Origin: Kibdelosporangium banguiense
Lineage (GTDB): Bacteria; Actinomycetota; Actinomycetes; Mycobacteriales; Pseudonocardiaceae
Direction of reading: 5' to 3'
Assembly (NCBI RefSeq): GCF_017876405.1
Contig: NZ_JAGINW010000001.1
Coordinates: 8,383,203 to 8,447,202, forward strand
Length of the DNA stretch: 64,000 nucleotides
This document shows, one piece after another, positions 53,396 to 59,815 of this stretch. Position 1 is the first letter of the stretch. Every line of letters begins with the position of its first letter. Under the pieces are notes generated by a model that saw only the letters and a list, made by a program, of their open reading frames with translations, was not told the DNA's origin and ran no database searches. Both the position numbers and the translations under genes were made by a program.

Positions 53396-54391
53396 ATGGT
53401 GAGTACACCGCTTCCGCTGGTCGACGTCGCCCGGTTCCGCGGGCCTGACCGTGACGAGTTTCTGGCCGAGCTGCGGCGCGCTGCCCACGAGGTGGGCTTC
53501 TTCTATGTTGTGGGGCATGGTGTCCCGGAGCGGCTGACCACGGGGATCTTCGAAGTGGCGCGGCGGTTCTTCGGGTTGCCGATCGAGCAGCGGCTGGCGA
53601 TCGAGAACATCAACTCGCCGCAGTTCCGCGGATACACACGAACGGGTTACGAGTACACCGGCGGGCAGCCTGACTGGCGGGAGCAGATCGATATCGGTCC
53701 TGAGCGCGAGGCCCTGCCGCGGGATGGGGACGCGCCCGCGTGGAAACGGTTGATCGGGCCCAATCAATGGCCTGATGGGCTGCCTGAGCTGCGGGAAACC
53801 GTGCTCGCGTGGCAGGCGGAGGCGTTGCGGGTCAGCCGGGAGGTGCTGCGGGCGTTGGCGGCGGCGTTGGGGCAGGACGTAGGGTACTTCGACGCCTGGT
53901 TCGACGAGGAGGCGTCCACCCACATCAAGATCGTCCGCTATCCCGGGCGGGATGACGCCGACCAGGGCGTGGGTGCGCACAAGGACTACGGCTATCTCGC
54001 CTTGCTGCAGCAGGACGACATAGGCGGGCTGCAGGTACAGGCGCAGGACGGCAGTTGGATCGATGCCACGCCGATTCCCGGCAGCTTCGTGTTCAACATC
54101 GGCGAGATGCTGGAGATCGCGACGCAGGGCTACCTGACCGCGACCAGGCACCGCGTGCTCAGCCCGCCCGCCGGCGTCGAGCGGTTCTCGGTGCCGTTCT
54201 TTCTTGGGCCGCGGCTGGATGCGGTCGTGGAGGCGTTGCAGCTGCCGGAGGAGCTGGCGGCTCAGGCCCGGGGCGTCAGTGATGAGAAGGACAACCCGCT
54301 GCACGCTCAGTTCGGGGCGAACGCGCTGGTCGGCTGGCTGCGGTCGCATCCCAAGGTGGCTGAGCGCTGGTGGTCGGACGTGCTCGCATGA
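53396..54391 (+). CDS. Isopenicillin-N-synthase-family Fe(II)/2-oxoglutarate oxygenase
   Basis: A 331-residue non-haem iron oxygenase. The N-terminal DIOX_N part (PLPLVDVARFRG, EVGFFYVVGHGVP) and the jelly-roll core are both present. Iron ligands are His and Asp in AHKDYGYLALLQQD (near residue 195) and the second His in TATRHRVLSPP (near 252); RFSVPFFLGP carries the Arg-x-Ser that binds the 2-oxoglutarate carboxylate. It is not isopenicillin N synthase itself, as no ACV synthetase is present. The substrate is unknown. Its stop overlaps the MetY-like gene start by ATGA, so the two are coupled. GTG 53399 is an alternative start. Confidence 0.9.
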   Translation: MVSTPLPLVDVARFRGPDRDEFLAELRRAAHEVGFFYVVGHGVPERLTTGIFEVARRFFGLPIEQRLAIENINSPQFRGYTRTGYEYTGGQPDWREQIDIGPEREALPRDGDAPAWKRLIGPNQWPDGLPELRETVLAWQAEALRVSREVLRALAAALGQDVGYFDAWFDEEASTHIKIVRYPGRDDADQGVGAHKDYGYLALLQQDDIGGLQVQAQDGSWIDATPIPGSFVFNIGEMLEIATQGYLTATRHRVLSPPAGVERFSVPFFLGPRLDAVVEALQLPEELAAQARGVSDEKDNPLHAQFGANALVGWLRSHPKVAERWWSDVLA

Positions 54392-55647
54392 CGCGGTGGT
54401 CGTTCGAGACCCGGCAGATCCATGCCGGTGCGCGGCCTGACCCCACGACGGGTGCCCGCGCGACGCCGCTGTATCAGACGACGTCGTACGTCTTCGACAA
54501 TGCTGATCATGCGGCTGCGGCGTTCGCGTTGCGGGATCTGGAAACGCACGCGTACAGCAGGCTTTCCAACCCGACGACCGCGGTTGTGGAGGAACGTCTG
54601 GCAGACCTGGAGAACGGGTACGCGGCTGTCGCGGTTGCCAGTGGGCAGGCTGCGTCGACGCTCGCTCTGCTGAACATCGCGAGAGCCGGTGACCACATCG
54701 TCTCGGCGGCGACCCTGTACGGCGGGACGTACAACCTGTTCGCGTACACGTTCAAGGACTTGGGGATCTCGGTCACGTTCGTCGATCCGGATGATCTCGG
54801 CCAATGGCGGGCCGCGGTCCGCCCGGAGACCAAGGCCTTCTACGCCGAGAGCATCGGCAACCCGCTGGGCAACGTGCTTGACGTGGCCGTGGTTGCCGAG
54901 ATCGCGCATTCCGCCGGTGTGCCGCTGGTTGTCGACAACACTGTGCCGACGCCCTATCTGTCGCGGCCGATCGACCATGGCGCGGATCTGGTGGTGCATT
55001 CGACGACCAAGTTCCTGTCCGGGCACGGCACCGGGATCGGTGGCGTGATCATCGACAGTGGACAGTTCGACTTCAGCTCCTGGTCGCAGTTCAGCGAACC
55101 CGACCCAAGCTACAACGGCCTGAAGTTCTCGTCCTTCGGCAAGCTCGCTTACGCTCTGCGGCTGCGTACCAAGCTTGTCCGTGACCTCGGACCGGCGGTG
55201 TCGCCGTTCAACAGTTTCCTTCTGCTACAAGGCATTGAGACGCTCTCGCTCAGAATGCAACGGCACGTCGCCAATGCGCAGGCCATTGCCGAGTGGCTGT
55301 CGGAGCGTGTCGAGCGGGTGCACTACGCGGGGCTTCCCGACAATCGGTGGCACGATGCGGCCAAGCGCTACATGCCCGACGGAGTGGGTGCTGTGGTCGC
55401 CTTCGAGCTGGCCGGGCTGGACGAGGGCAAGCGGTTCGTGGACCGGCTGGAACTGTTCAGCCACCTGGCGAATATCGGTGACGTGCGCAGTCTCGTGATC
55501 CATCCGGCCTCGACCACACACGCTCAGCTCACCGAGGAGCAGCAACGGGCCAGCGGGGTGACGCCGGGACTCATCCGGCTGTCGGTCGGTCTCGAAGGAC
55601 TGGCAGACCTGATAGCCGATCTGGAACGGGGATCCGACCATGGGTGA
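54388..55647 (+). CDS. O-acetylhomoserine sulfhydrylase-like PLP enzyme
   Basis: A 419-residue Cys/Met-metabolism PLP enzyme of the MetY (O-acetyl-L-homoserine aminocarboxypropyltransferase) group. ETRQIHAGARPDPTTGARA and TTSYVFDNADHAAAAF are typical MetY starts; the PLP lysine is in VHSTTKFLSGHGTGIGG near residue 207. It would make homocysteine from O-acetylhomoserine and sulfide, or a related gamma-replacement. It overlaps the oxygenase before it and the broken hydrolase after it. A primary metabolic or a specialised role are both possible. Confidence 0.9.
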   Translation: MTRWSFETRQIHAGARPDPTTGARATPLYQTTSYVFDNADHAAAAFALRDLETHAYSRLSNPTTAVVEERLADLENGYAAVAVASGQAASTLALLNIARAGDHIVSAATLYGGTYNLFAYTFKDLGISVTFVDPDDLGQWRAAVRPETKAFYAESIGNPLGNVLDVAVVAEIAHSAGVPLVVDNTVPTPYLSRPIDHGADLVVHSTTKFLSGHGTGIGGVIIDSGQFDFSSWSQFSEPDPSYNGLKFSSFGKLAYALRLRTKLVRDLGPAVSPFNSFLLLQGIETLSLRMQRHVANAQAIAEWLSERVERVHYAGLPDNRWHDAAKRYMPDGVGAVVAFELAGLDEGKRFVDRLELFSHLANIGDVRSLVIHPASTTHAQLTEEQQRASGVTPGLIRLSVGLEGLADLIADLERGSDHG

Positions 55648-56434
55648 GTTCGCGGGCAACGCCGGCAAGATCCACTATCGCAGCTGGATACCGGACGACC
55701 CGACGGCGGTTGTCGTGTTCTTCCACGGGCTCGGGGAACACATCGGCAGCTACGAGCCCTTCGCAGCGGCGCTCAACGAAGCGGGCCTCGCGCTCTGGGC
55801 GCACGATCACGCCGGGCACGGCCGCAGCGAAGGCGTGCGGGTCCTGATCAACGACATCGACGACCTGCTCGACGACGCCAGCATCCTGCTCGATCACGCT
55901 CGCTCGGCACACGACGCTCTGCCTTTGATCCTGATTGGACACTAGCTCGGTTCCACCGTGGCCACCTTGCTCACGGGCGAACGACTCCTGCCCGCGGGTA
56001 CGCCGCCCGTGAAGCTCGTCCTGGCCGGATCGAGCCTGGTCCCCAGCGCGGACAACGGATTGGTCGCATTGCTGTCCACCGGCGTCGACCCGATGGATCT
56101 GCGCAAAGACCCGGGCGAGATGACCCGCAACACCGGCTACGCCGAGCAGATCCGTAACGACCCGTTCACCTGGCAGGGCGGTATCCGCCTGGAAACCCTG
56201 CAGGCCCTGGGTGTCGCGGCCGGGCGAGTGTCCACTGTGCTCCCGTCGATCGACGTGCCGGTCCTGCTCGTGCACGGGGCCAAGGACGACATGGCACCTG
56301 TCTCGGGTGCCGAACAGGCCGCGAAAGTGCTGCCAGACGCCCGTACCGCCATCTTCGCCGACGACCTGCACAACATCCTCAACGAACTGGACCGGGACGA
56401 CGTCTACCGGACGATCATCGAGTTCATCCGATAG
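55640..56434 (+). pseudogene. Alpha/beta hydrolase (monoacylglycerol-lipase-like) with amber codon at the nucleophile
   Basis: A 264-codon frame overlapping the MetY-like gene by 8 bp. VVVFFHGLGEHIGSYEPF and ALWAHDHAGHGRSEG are the oxyanion-loop and early motifs of monoacylglycerol lipases, and later VPVLLVHGAKDDMAPVSGAE and ADDLHNILNELDRD give the Asp and His of the triad. The nucleophile elbow reads GH-stop-LGS: TAG at 55943-55945 takes the exact place of the catalytic Ser of GHSLG, one base from the Ser codon TCG. The frame is otherwise open and conserved to TAG at 56432-56434. Translation from 55640 alone gives a 101-residue inactive fragment. Confidence 0.8.
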
Positions 56435-57531: not shown

Positions 57532-58894
57532 CGCCGTCGAGCTGCGGGGAATCACCAAGCGGTTTCCCGGCGTGCTCGCCAACTCGGATGTCTCCCTCTC
57601 GGTGCGGGCCGGCGAGATCCACGCGCTGATGGGGGAGAACGGCGCGGGCAAGTCCACGCTGATGTCGATCCTGTACGGGCTCCACCAGCCGGACGCCGGC
57701 ACGATCGCACTGCACGGGCGTGAAGTCTCGTTCACGTCGCCCGCGCAGGCGATCTCGACCGGGGTCGGCATGGTGCACCAGGACTTCGCCCTGTTCCCGC
57801 AGCTGACCGTCACCGAGAACGTGATCTTCGGGCGGGAGCCCATCCGCCGTGGCTTCCTCTCACGTAAAGCTGCGAGGGCCGCGGTGGCCTCCTTGATCGA
57901 CAAGCACGAATTGCGGCTGCGGCCCGATACCCGGATCGCCGATCTACCGGTCGGTCTGCGCCAACAGGTCGAGATCCTCAAGCTGCTCTACCGCGAGGCC
58001 TCGATCCTGATCCTGGACGAGCCGACCGCGGTCCTGACGCCCGCGGAGACGTCGAGGCTGTTCGGGGTGCTCCGGGATCTCGCGGCGGCAGGCAAGACCG
58101 TGCTGTTCGTGTCGCACAAGCTGCAGGAAGTCCTTGAGGTCAGCGACAACGTGACCGTGCTTCGGGACGGCGAGGTCACCGCACGCGGGGCAACTTCGTC
58201 TTTCACGGGTCCCGCGCTGGCGTCGGCGATGACCGGCCGCGCGGTGGACCTGGATCGGACCTATCCTGCAGGATCGCCCGGCAAAGTGGTGCTCGAGATT
58301 CCCGGCCTGACGGTATATGCCGGGGAGATCGTGGGGATCGCGGGAAATGGGCAGGCCGAACTGGTCGAGTCGATCACCACGGGTGTGCACGACGAGGTCG
58401 CCCACGTGCCCGAATCACGTTCCGAGGTGGGCTCGGCGCCGCATGCGCCCCTCGCGGCGAACCTGGCCGTGGGGTTCCAGCGTCGCCTGGCGAACAAGGG
58501 ATTTCTGCGGCCGTCCGCGATCAGGGAGCATGCCGGCAAGATCATCGCCAGGTTCGACGTCCGCGGGACCGGCTCGACGATGGACACGTTGTCCGGCGGT
58601 AACCAGCAGAAAGCCATTCTCGGCCGGGAACTCACGCATGGCGCGCCGCTGCTTGTGGTCGAACAACCGACCCGCGGTGTGGATGTCGGCGCGATCGAGA
58701 ACATCCACGCGCAGCTGATCGCCTACCGGGACGCCGGGCACGGCGTGCTGCTGGTCTCGGCGGAACTGAGCGAGATCCTGGCGCTCTCGGACCGGATTCT
58801 GGTGATGTACGGGGGCCGGTTCGTGGCCGAGTTCGACCGGGAGAACGCCGATCCCGGCCAGATCGGCCTCGCGATGGCCGGTGGTGCCCGATGA
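57512..58894 (+). CDS. Dual-domain ABC ATPase of a nucleoside/sugar-type importer
   Basis: A 460-residue protein with two ABC halves. The first has Walker A GENGAGKSTLMSIL, signature DLPVGLRQQVEIL and Walker B ILILDEPTAVLTP. The second has a degenerate Walker A (VGIAGNGQAELVES), signature TLSGGNQQKAILGREL and LLVVEQPTRGVDVGA, the usual pattern of RbsA/YufO-type ATPases. It is about 40 residues shorter than common members because the region between the two sites of the second half (after GVHDEVAHVPE) is compact. ATG 57512 lies inside the binding-protein gene, a 20-bp overlap. Confidence 0.9.
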   Translation: MTQPSPDAVELRGITKRFPGVLANSDVSLSVRAGEIHALMGENGAGKSTLMSILYGLHQPDAGTIALHGREVSFTSPAQAISTGVGMVHQDFALFPQLTVTENVIFGREPIRRGFLSRKAARAAVASLIDKHELRLRPDTRIADLPVGLRQQVEILKLLYREASILILDEPTAVLTPAETSRLFGVLRDLAAAGKTVLFVSHKLQEVLEVSDNVTVLRDGEVTARGATSSFTGPALASAMTGRAVDLDRTYPAGSPGKVVLEIPGLTVYAGEIVGIAGNGQAELVESITTGVHDEVAHVPESRSEVGSAPHAPLAANLAVGFQRRLANKGFLRPSAIREHAGKIIARFDVRGTGSTMDTLSGGNQQKAILGRELTHGAPLLVVEQPTRGVDVGAIENIHAQLIAYRDAGHGVLLVSAELSEILALSDRILVMYGGRFVAEFDRENADPGQIGLAMAGGAR

Positions 58895-59815
58895 ATCGGC
58901 GTATCCGGGCCATCGGCATTCCCTTGGTCGCTGCCTTGCTGCTGGGCGCGCTTTTGTTGCTCGCGACTGGAGTTGATCCGCTCGACGCGTATGGCGCGAT
59001 TCTGTCCGGGGCGTTCGGGCCGGACGGGTTCGCCGACACCCTTTCCTATGTGATTCCCGTGGCGGGTCTGGCCACGGCGTTGGCGATTCCACTGCGGGCC
59101 GGAATGGTCAATCTCGGTGGCGAAGGTCAGCTTGTGCTGGGTGCGATCAGTGCGATCGCGGCCGGGTTGTACACGCCAGGGCCTGGATGGGTGAAGGTCC
59201 TGGTCGCGTTGGTGGCCGCGATTCTTGCGGGCGGGGCGTACGCGGCATTGGCGGCAGTGTGTGAGAACAGATTCGGTGTGCCGCTGCTGATCAGTACTCT
59301 GCTGCTGAGTTATCCGGCGATGTCGCTGGCCGGTTATCTGGTCCGGTTTCCGATGAAAGACGAAGGATCGAGCCTGCCGCAGAGCGCGCAACTCCCGCCT
59401 GGCGCACGGCTGCCGGAACTGGTGGGACTGGGGATTGTTCTGCTTGTCGTCATGGTTCGAGACCAAGGTGACCGGGTGGAACCCGAGGTTCGCGGCCTAC
59501 GCGGGAATCGACCGGCCGAAGCTCACACTCGGATTGCTCGCGTGCTCCGGGGCGACCGCCGGGCTCACCGGGGCTATTGTGGCGATGGACTTTCCGTACC
59601 GGTTCATCGACGGTGCCCTGATCACACCGCAGTACACCTGGATCGGGTTGCTGGCGGCATTGCTGGCCAGGGCGAATCCCGTCGCGACACTGCTGGCGGC
59701 GGTGTTCTTCGCGACGCAGGTGCCACGGGAACTGACAGCGGTACTGCAGGCCGTGCTGATTCTGTTCCTGGCGGCGGCATCGGGACTTCTGCGCAAGCGA
59801 GGTGCCCGTGTTTGA
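58891..59815 (+). pseudogene. Nucleoside ABC permease (first subunit), frameshifted
   Basis: A BMP-type (YufP-like) permease gene. The first part runs in the frame of ATG 58891 (IGIPLVAALLLGALLLLA, LRAGMVNLGGEGQLVLGAI, VPLLISTLLLSYPAMSLAGY) to LGIVLLVV near 59450. The second part is in the next frame and reads WFETKVTGWNPRFAAYAGI, TLGLLACSGATAGLTGAIVA and YTWIGLLAALLARANP to TGA at 59813-59815. Removing one base, for example A59452, joins the two as LLVVWFETKVTGWNP, so a one-base insertion explains it. Left as is, the protein would lose its last three helices. A sequencing error is as likely as a real mutation. Confidence 0.82.

What the first reader, a model, noticed from the sequence alone, without database searches (positions are those of the whole stretch)
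55943..55945. Amber codon exactly at the catalytic serine of an otherwise intact alpha/beta hydrolase
The elbow should be GHSLG but reads GH-TAG-LG. The rest of the 264-codon frame, including the Asp and His of the triad, is undamaged, so the change is recent, an error, or a case of recoding. A C-to-A change in TCG explains it. The position is striking, since of all codons the nucleophile is hit.
Basis: seen in the sequence. Interest (0 to 1): 0.6.

Follow-up and report, generated by a model that had tools for sequence, protein, structure and literature searches.

The report
Recently broken hydrolase gene
A soil actinomycete carries a single premature stop in an otherwise normal hydrolase gene, at the codon for its catalytic serine; the evidence points to an ordinary, recent loss of the gene and not to any special reading of the stop.

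Summary
In the frame 55640-56434 (+), codon 102 is TAG at 55943-55945, where relatives have the serine of GHSLG. Of 27 homologues (E<=1e-50) found in 390 family genomes, only this copy has a stop. In 14 orthologues read codon by codon, all have Ser there: TCG in 10, TCC in 3, TCA in 1.

Recoding is not supported. None of the genome's 68 tRNA matches has a CTA anticodon, release factor 1 is present, the PylS model finds nothing above its cut-off, and TAG is an ordinary terminator (it also ends this gene).

The rest of the gene shows no significant excess of change over intact orthologues, so the stop is recent. A base-call error cannot be excluded without reads. Against it, 6 flags among 121 genes of a 200-kb control region all proved to be false, and a neighbouring permease carries a 35-bp frame-shifting deletion, so gene decay is real here. 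A congener's annotation (298 pseudogenes in 12.05 Mb) scales to about 1.6 per 64 kb.

Verdict: most likely a recent nonsense pseudogene, last in a conserved three-gene block. Hitting the nucleophile codon is about a 1-in-50 coincidence. Ordinary.

The parts
55943..55945 (+). In-frame TAG at codon 102, the nucleophile-elbow position of the hydrolase
   Evidence: Direct reading; orthologues have Ser there
55640..56434 (+). Hydrolase reading frame (Hydrolase_4 / S33-type alpha/beta hydrolase) broken by the amber; its own terminator is also TAG
   Evidence: Pfam PF12146 1e-42; orthologues 67-69% identical in 6 of 7 congeners
54370..55647 (+). Cys/Met-metabolism PLP enzyme (O-acetylhomoserine sulfhydrylase-like, name recalled), open frame that overlaps the start of the hydrolase by 8 bases
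   Evidence: PF01053 8.5e-132; found next to the hydrolase in 10 of 11 relatives examined
53396..54391 (+). 2OG-Fe(II) oxygenase, open frame, first gene of the conserved three-gene block
   Evidence: PF14226 and PF03171; found in 9 of 11 relatives, one of them cut by a contig end
58891..59815 (+). Second broken gene nearby: ABC permease with a net 35-bp deletion near 59453 that shifts the frame
   Evidence: DNA alignment with G007, G002 and G003, 35 gap positions in own in each, in one gap or a few; two PF02653 halves in different frames

Best explanation
The gene is a recent nonsense pseudogene. A single base substitution turned the nucleophile serine codon of a Hydrolase_4-type alpha/beta hydrolase into TAG. 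Translation stops after 101 residues, before the nucleophile and the rest of the catalytic apparatus, so no active enzyme is made. The gene is last of a conserved block (2OG-Fe(II) oxygenase, Cys/Met PLP enzyme, hydrolase), so losing it leaves the two genes before it untouched. Shown: the stop, its absence from the relatives examined, TAG as a live stop, no amber tRNA found. Inferred: that the base is real, and that the product is lost.
For: Only this copy of 27 homologues at E<=1e-50 in 390 family genomes has an internal stop. 14 of 14 orthologues read have Ser, TCG in 10. None of 12 relative-rate comparisons of the hydrolase is significant, lowest p 0.177, and pN and pS are alike before and after the stop, so the loss is recent. 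No CTA-anticodon tRNA among 68 matches. RF1 present. The gene looks dispensable: no match in 1 of 7 congeners (G001), and none at E<=1e-50 in 363 of 390 family genomes. A neighbouring permease is also broken, by a 35-bp deletion. A congener has 298 annotated pseudogenes in 12.05 Mb (PMC9022495, passages read), about 1.6 per 64 kb.
Against: One substitution with no other lesion in the frame is also what a base-call error would look like. In 10 of the 12 hydrolase comparisons own has more private changes than its partner, though not significantly; they are not independent. Own departs at 8 of 104 columns strictly conserved in 11 relatives, the Ser included; without the Ser it is 7, against 5 for G006, 2 for G007, 1 for G003 and 0 for the other three. 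A little relaxation before the stop is therefore possible.
Confidence: 0.8

Rival explanations
1. Base-call or assembly error: the strain's gene is intact and only the deposited sequence has TAG.
For: Single substitution; otherwise normal gene with no significant sign of decay. No reads available.
Against: In 200 kb around rpoB, 121 genes (39,427 aa) compared with a congener gave 6 flags, none of which I judge a lesion inside a gene. The neighbouring 35-bp deletion is not a typical base-call error (inference).
Confidence: 0.15
2. Recoding: TAG is read as serine or another residue and the full enzyme is made.
For: The frame downstream is as conserved as the frame upstream.
Against: No CTA-anticodon tRNA found; RF1 present; no PylS above cut-off; TAG ends 14-25% of the ORFs picked in three regions and this gene itself; no relative examined shares the amber. 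Near-cognate readthrough of UAG usually inserts Gln, Tyr or Lys (recalled), which would not serve as this nucleophile.
Confidence: 0.02
3. The two halves are made as separate polypeptides (101 aa, then restart at GTG 55958) and keep a non-catalytic role.
For: A GTG begins at 55958, 12 bases past the stop codon, and opens a 158-codon frame; both halves show similar constraint.
Against: The nucleophile is absent from both halves; none of the 26 other homologues has a stop; I saw no clear ribosome-binding site before the GTG (by eye).
Confidence: 0.03

Closest known systems
Hydrolase_4 (PF12146, serine aminopeptidase S33 type alpha/beta hydrolases)
   Same: Match over residues 20-251 of 264, positions 2-239 of 239 in the profile, with elbow context GHxLG and later conserved HG..DD and D[LR]HN stretches
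   Different: The nucleophile codon is a stop, so the allele cannot encode an active member by the standard code
Pseudogenes of large actinomycete genomes, e.g. 298 annotated in Kibdelosporangium philippinense (PMC9022495, passages read)
   Same: Isolated lesion in a dispensable gene with intact orthologues
   Different: The lesion happens to fall on the nucleophile codon; the paper's count is for a draft assembly and may include genes cut by contig ends

Membership tests
Hydrolase_4 / S33 alpha/beta hydrolase | Profile match over the curated cut-off | tested here: met
   146.6 bits, cut-off 27, protein read with X at the amber
Hydrolase_4 / S33 alpha/beta hydrolase | Catalytic Ser in the nucleophile elbow | tested here: not met
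   Codon is TAG; 14 of 14 orthologues read have Ser
Nonsense pseudogene | Stop inside a frame whose orthologues are uninterrupted | tested here: met
   26 of 26 other homologues listed have no stop
Nonsense pseudogene | No functional product | not testable with these tools
   Needs expression or proteome data
Programmed amber readthrough or recoding | A tRNA that decodes UAG | tested here: not met
   None with a CTA anticodon among 68 tRNA matches; a tRNA that the Rfam model misses is not excluded
Programmed amber readthrough or recoding | Stop position conserved in relatives | tested here: not met
   0 of 26 other homologues has a stop

The most novel reading that the evidence does not exclude
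The amber is a genuine allele whose read-through at a low level, with serine inserted by a mischarged or mutant tRNA not seen here, gives a trace of active hydrolase.
Probability: 0.01. Interest if true: 0.7.

Novelty: new member of a known kind. Interest (0 to 1): 0.08.

Why it matters
It matters little beyond annotation: the gene should be marked as a pseudogene, or the base checked. It shows that a stop at a catalytic codon is not by itself evidence of recoding. The conserved oxygenase / PLP enzyme / hydrolase block it belongs to may deserve study in strains where it is whole.

Tried and rejected
Recoding by a suppressor tRNA: an Rfam tRNA search of the whole genome gave 68 matches at E<=0.001. 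The 30 given as loci, and 28 stretches fetched to hold the other 38, were read by ARAGORN: no CTA anticodon. Two matches that ARAGORN did not call (in L108 and L122) and two with irregular loops (L120, L121) were looked at by eye or in the covariance alignment: none shows CTA as anticodon. A pattern for a CTA loop plus T arm gave 5 matches (reversed-pattern control 2). ARAGORN reads a tRNA with another anticodon at 4 of the 5 and no tRNA at the fifth.

Pyrrolysine: the best PylS match is 22.7 bits, E 2.7e-4, below the cut-off of 178.15; 13 of 14 control genomes also ring at that loose level, 1 over the cut-off.

Bad assembly: the first control stretch (bases 1-200,000 of G000 and of G002) gave 0 comparable genes. 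The rpoB region was used instead. A crude scan there flagged 42 of 134 genes in own and 37 of 130 in the congener; the flags I examined later came from upstream extensions and gene junctions. A stricter scan flagged 6 of 121 in own and 1 of 111 in the congener. Of the 6, five were aligned as DNA. Three (12770, 46796, 171318) were tested for codon-position bias, and their stops lie where third-position bias is absent, ahead of the biased part. The other three, read from the alignments, are at gene junctions or just upstream of a gene. The congener's single flag was not followed up. The stricter scan is not fully sensitive: it flagged the known amber in the window against G002, G005 and G003 but not against G007. 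Against G003 it also flagged stops at 54280-54361 (ahead of the PLP enzyme's start) and at 74648 of the joined stretch (at a gene border); neither was followed up.

Relative rates: the hydrolase gave no significant test of 12. Of 12 tests on the neighbouring PLP enzyme, 2 had p below 0.05, both with own slower than G007.

Closer strains: none found; the nearest orthologue is 69% identical, and the collections hold one genome per species. One search scored only the best 6 candidates per genome.

Literature: two searches. I saw the listings only (2 of 2 and 10 of 51 papers); no title or abstract start shown there is about this gene. For PMC9022495 I read the passages on pseudogenes. For PMC3711429 I saw the abstract and outline and did not use it.

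Full report
Observation. The window is 8,383,203-8,447,202 of a 12,808,207-base single contig. Two more, G003 and G004, match records titled Actinosynnema sp. and Rhodococcus rhodnii. I therefore take the genus to be Kibdelosporangium, by inference. TAG lies in frame at 55943-55945, codon 102 of the frame 55640-56434, which itself ends in TAG. The product, read with X there, matches Pfam Hydrolase_4 at 1e-42.

Is it more than chance? In the frame, 42 of the other 263 codons are one base away from a stop, by 49 single changes (less the amber codon itself). A nonsense change falls on the nucleophile codon about once in 50. Several other positions would have looked equally notable to a reader, so the coincidence is weak (inference).

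Comparison. Six of seven congeners carry an orthologue 67-69% identical, without a stop; the seventh, G001, has no match. In 390 genomes of the family, 27 have a homologue at E<=1e-50; this is the only one with an internal stop (best 6 candidates scored per genome). I read the elbow codon in 14 orthologues: six and eight, leaving out four loci that are the same places as ones. They have TCG in 10, TCC in 3, TCA in 1. That script looked for GHS[LM]G and so for a Ser, but it found the elbow in all 14, and the alignment shows them in register. The amber is private to this genome among those examined.

Age. If the gene had been dead for long, it would have drifted. Relative-rate comparisons of own against G006, G002 and G007 with four outgroups gave 12 tests for the hydrolase, the lowest p 0.177; own has the larger count in 10 of the 12, which are not independent. 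Own-to-congener pN is 0.184-0.209, against 0.170-0.182 for G006 to the other five; the values before and after the stop are alike. At 104 columns strictly conserved in 11 relatives, own departs at 8, the Ser included. By the like measure without the Ser, own has 7, G006 5, G007 2, G003 1 and the other three 0. This is mild. The stop is recent on the scale of these species, or is an error.

Recoding. The whole-genome Rfam search gave 68 tRNA matches. ARAGORN gives none of them a CTA anticodon, and the four irregular or uncalled ones do not show one either. A loop pattern found nothing further. RF1 is present at 496.1 bits, cut-off 423.25. PylS is not found above cut-off. TAG ends 6 of 42 mechanically picked ORFs in the window (two of them the halves of this gene), 23 of 147 around rpoB and 35 of 142 in the first 200 kb. 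These picks include some false ORFs, but TAG is plainly an ordinary stop. Near-cognate decoding of UAG in bacteria usually gives Gln, Tyr or Lys (recalled, no call), which would not restore a serine hydrolase.

Error. No reads are held. As a control I compared 200 kb around rpoB with congener G002: 121 genes, 39,427 residues, 6 flags. Five flags were aligned as DNA and three were tested for codon-position bias. I judge all six to lie at gene junctions or upstream of the true coding part, so I count no true lesion. The scan is not fully sensitive: in the window it flagged the known amber against three of four congeners. Within that limit, the assembly does not scatter false stops or frameshifts at a noticeable rate. 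This does not exclude one wrong base.

Neighbourhood. Upstream lie an open 2OG-Fe(II) oxygenase frame and an open Cys/Met PLP enzyme frame. The PLP enzyme was found beside the hydrolase in 10 of 11 relatives examined, the oxygenase in 9 of 11, one of them (G006) cut by a contig end. The hydrolase is last in this block, so its loss should not disturb the other two (inference). Downstream, an ABC permease frame is broken near 59453 by a net 35-bp deletion relative to three congeners; it matches PF02653 in two halves in different frames. K. philippinense has 298 annotated pseudogenes in 12,054,556 bp (PMC9022495, passages read), which scales to about 1.6 per 64 kb. Two broken genes in this window are unremarkable; I did not survey the whole window for more.

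Conclusion. Most likely a recent nonsense pseudogene (0.8), next a base-call error (0.15). Recoding or a split function is very unlikely. Interest is low.

Noticed in passing
window 58891-59815: ABC permease gene with a net 35-bp frame-shifting deletion relative to three congeners, between an open ATPase frame and an open second permease frame of what looks like the same transporter.
   Followed up: yes
window 53396-56434: Block of 2OG-Fe(II) oxygenase, Cys/Met PLP enzyme and Hydrolase_4 hydrolase found in Kibdelosporangium, Amycolatopsis and Saccharothrix; its pathway was not worked out.
   Followed up: partly
L120 51-127: tRNA match with an enlarged loop that ARAGORN reads as a four-base anticodon (cccg); perhaps a pseudo-tRNA.
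   Followed up: partly
L096, L098, L103, L116: Clusters of further tRNA genes, many lower-scoring, away from the best-scoring ones; possibly of mobile-element origin (guess).
   Followed up: no
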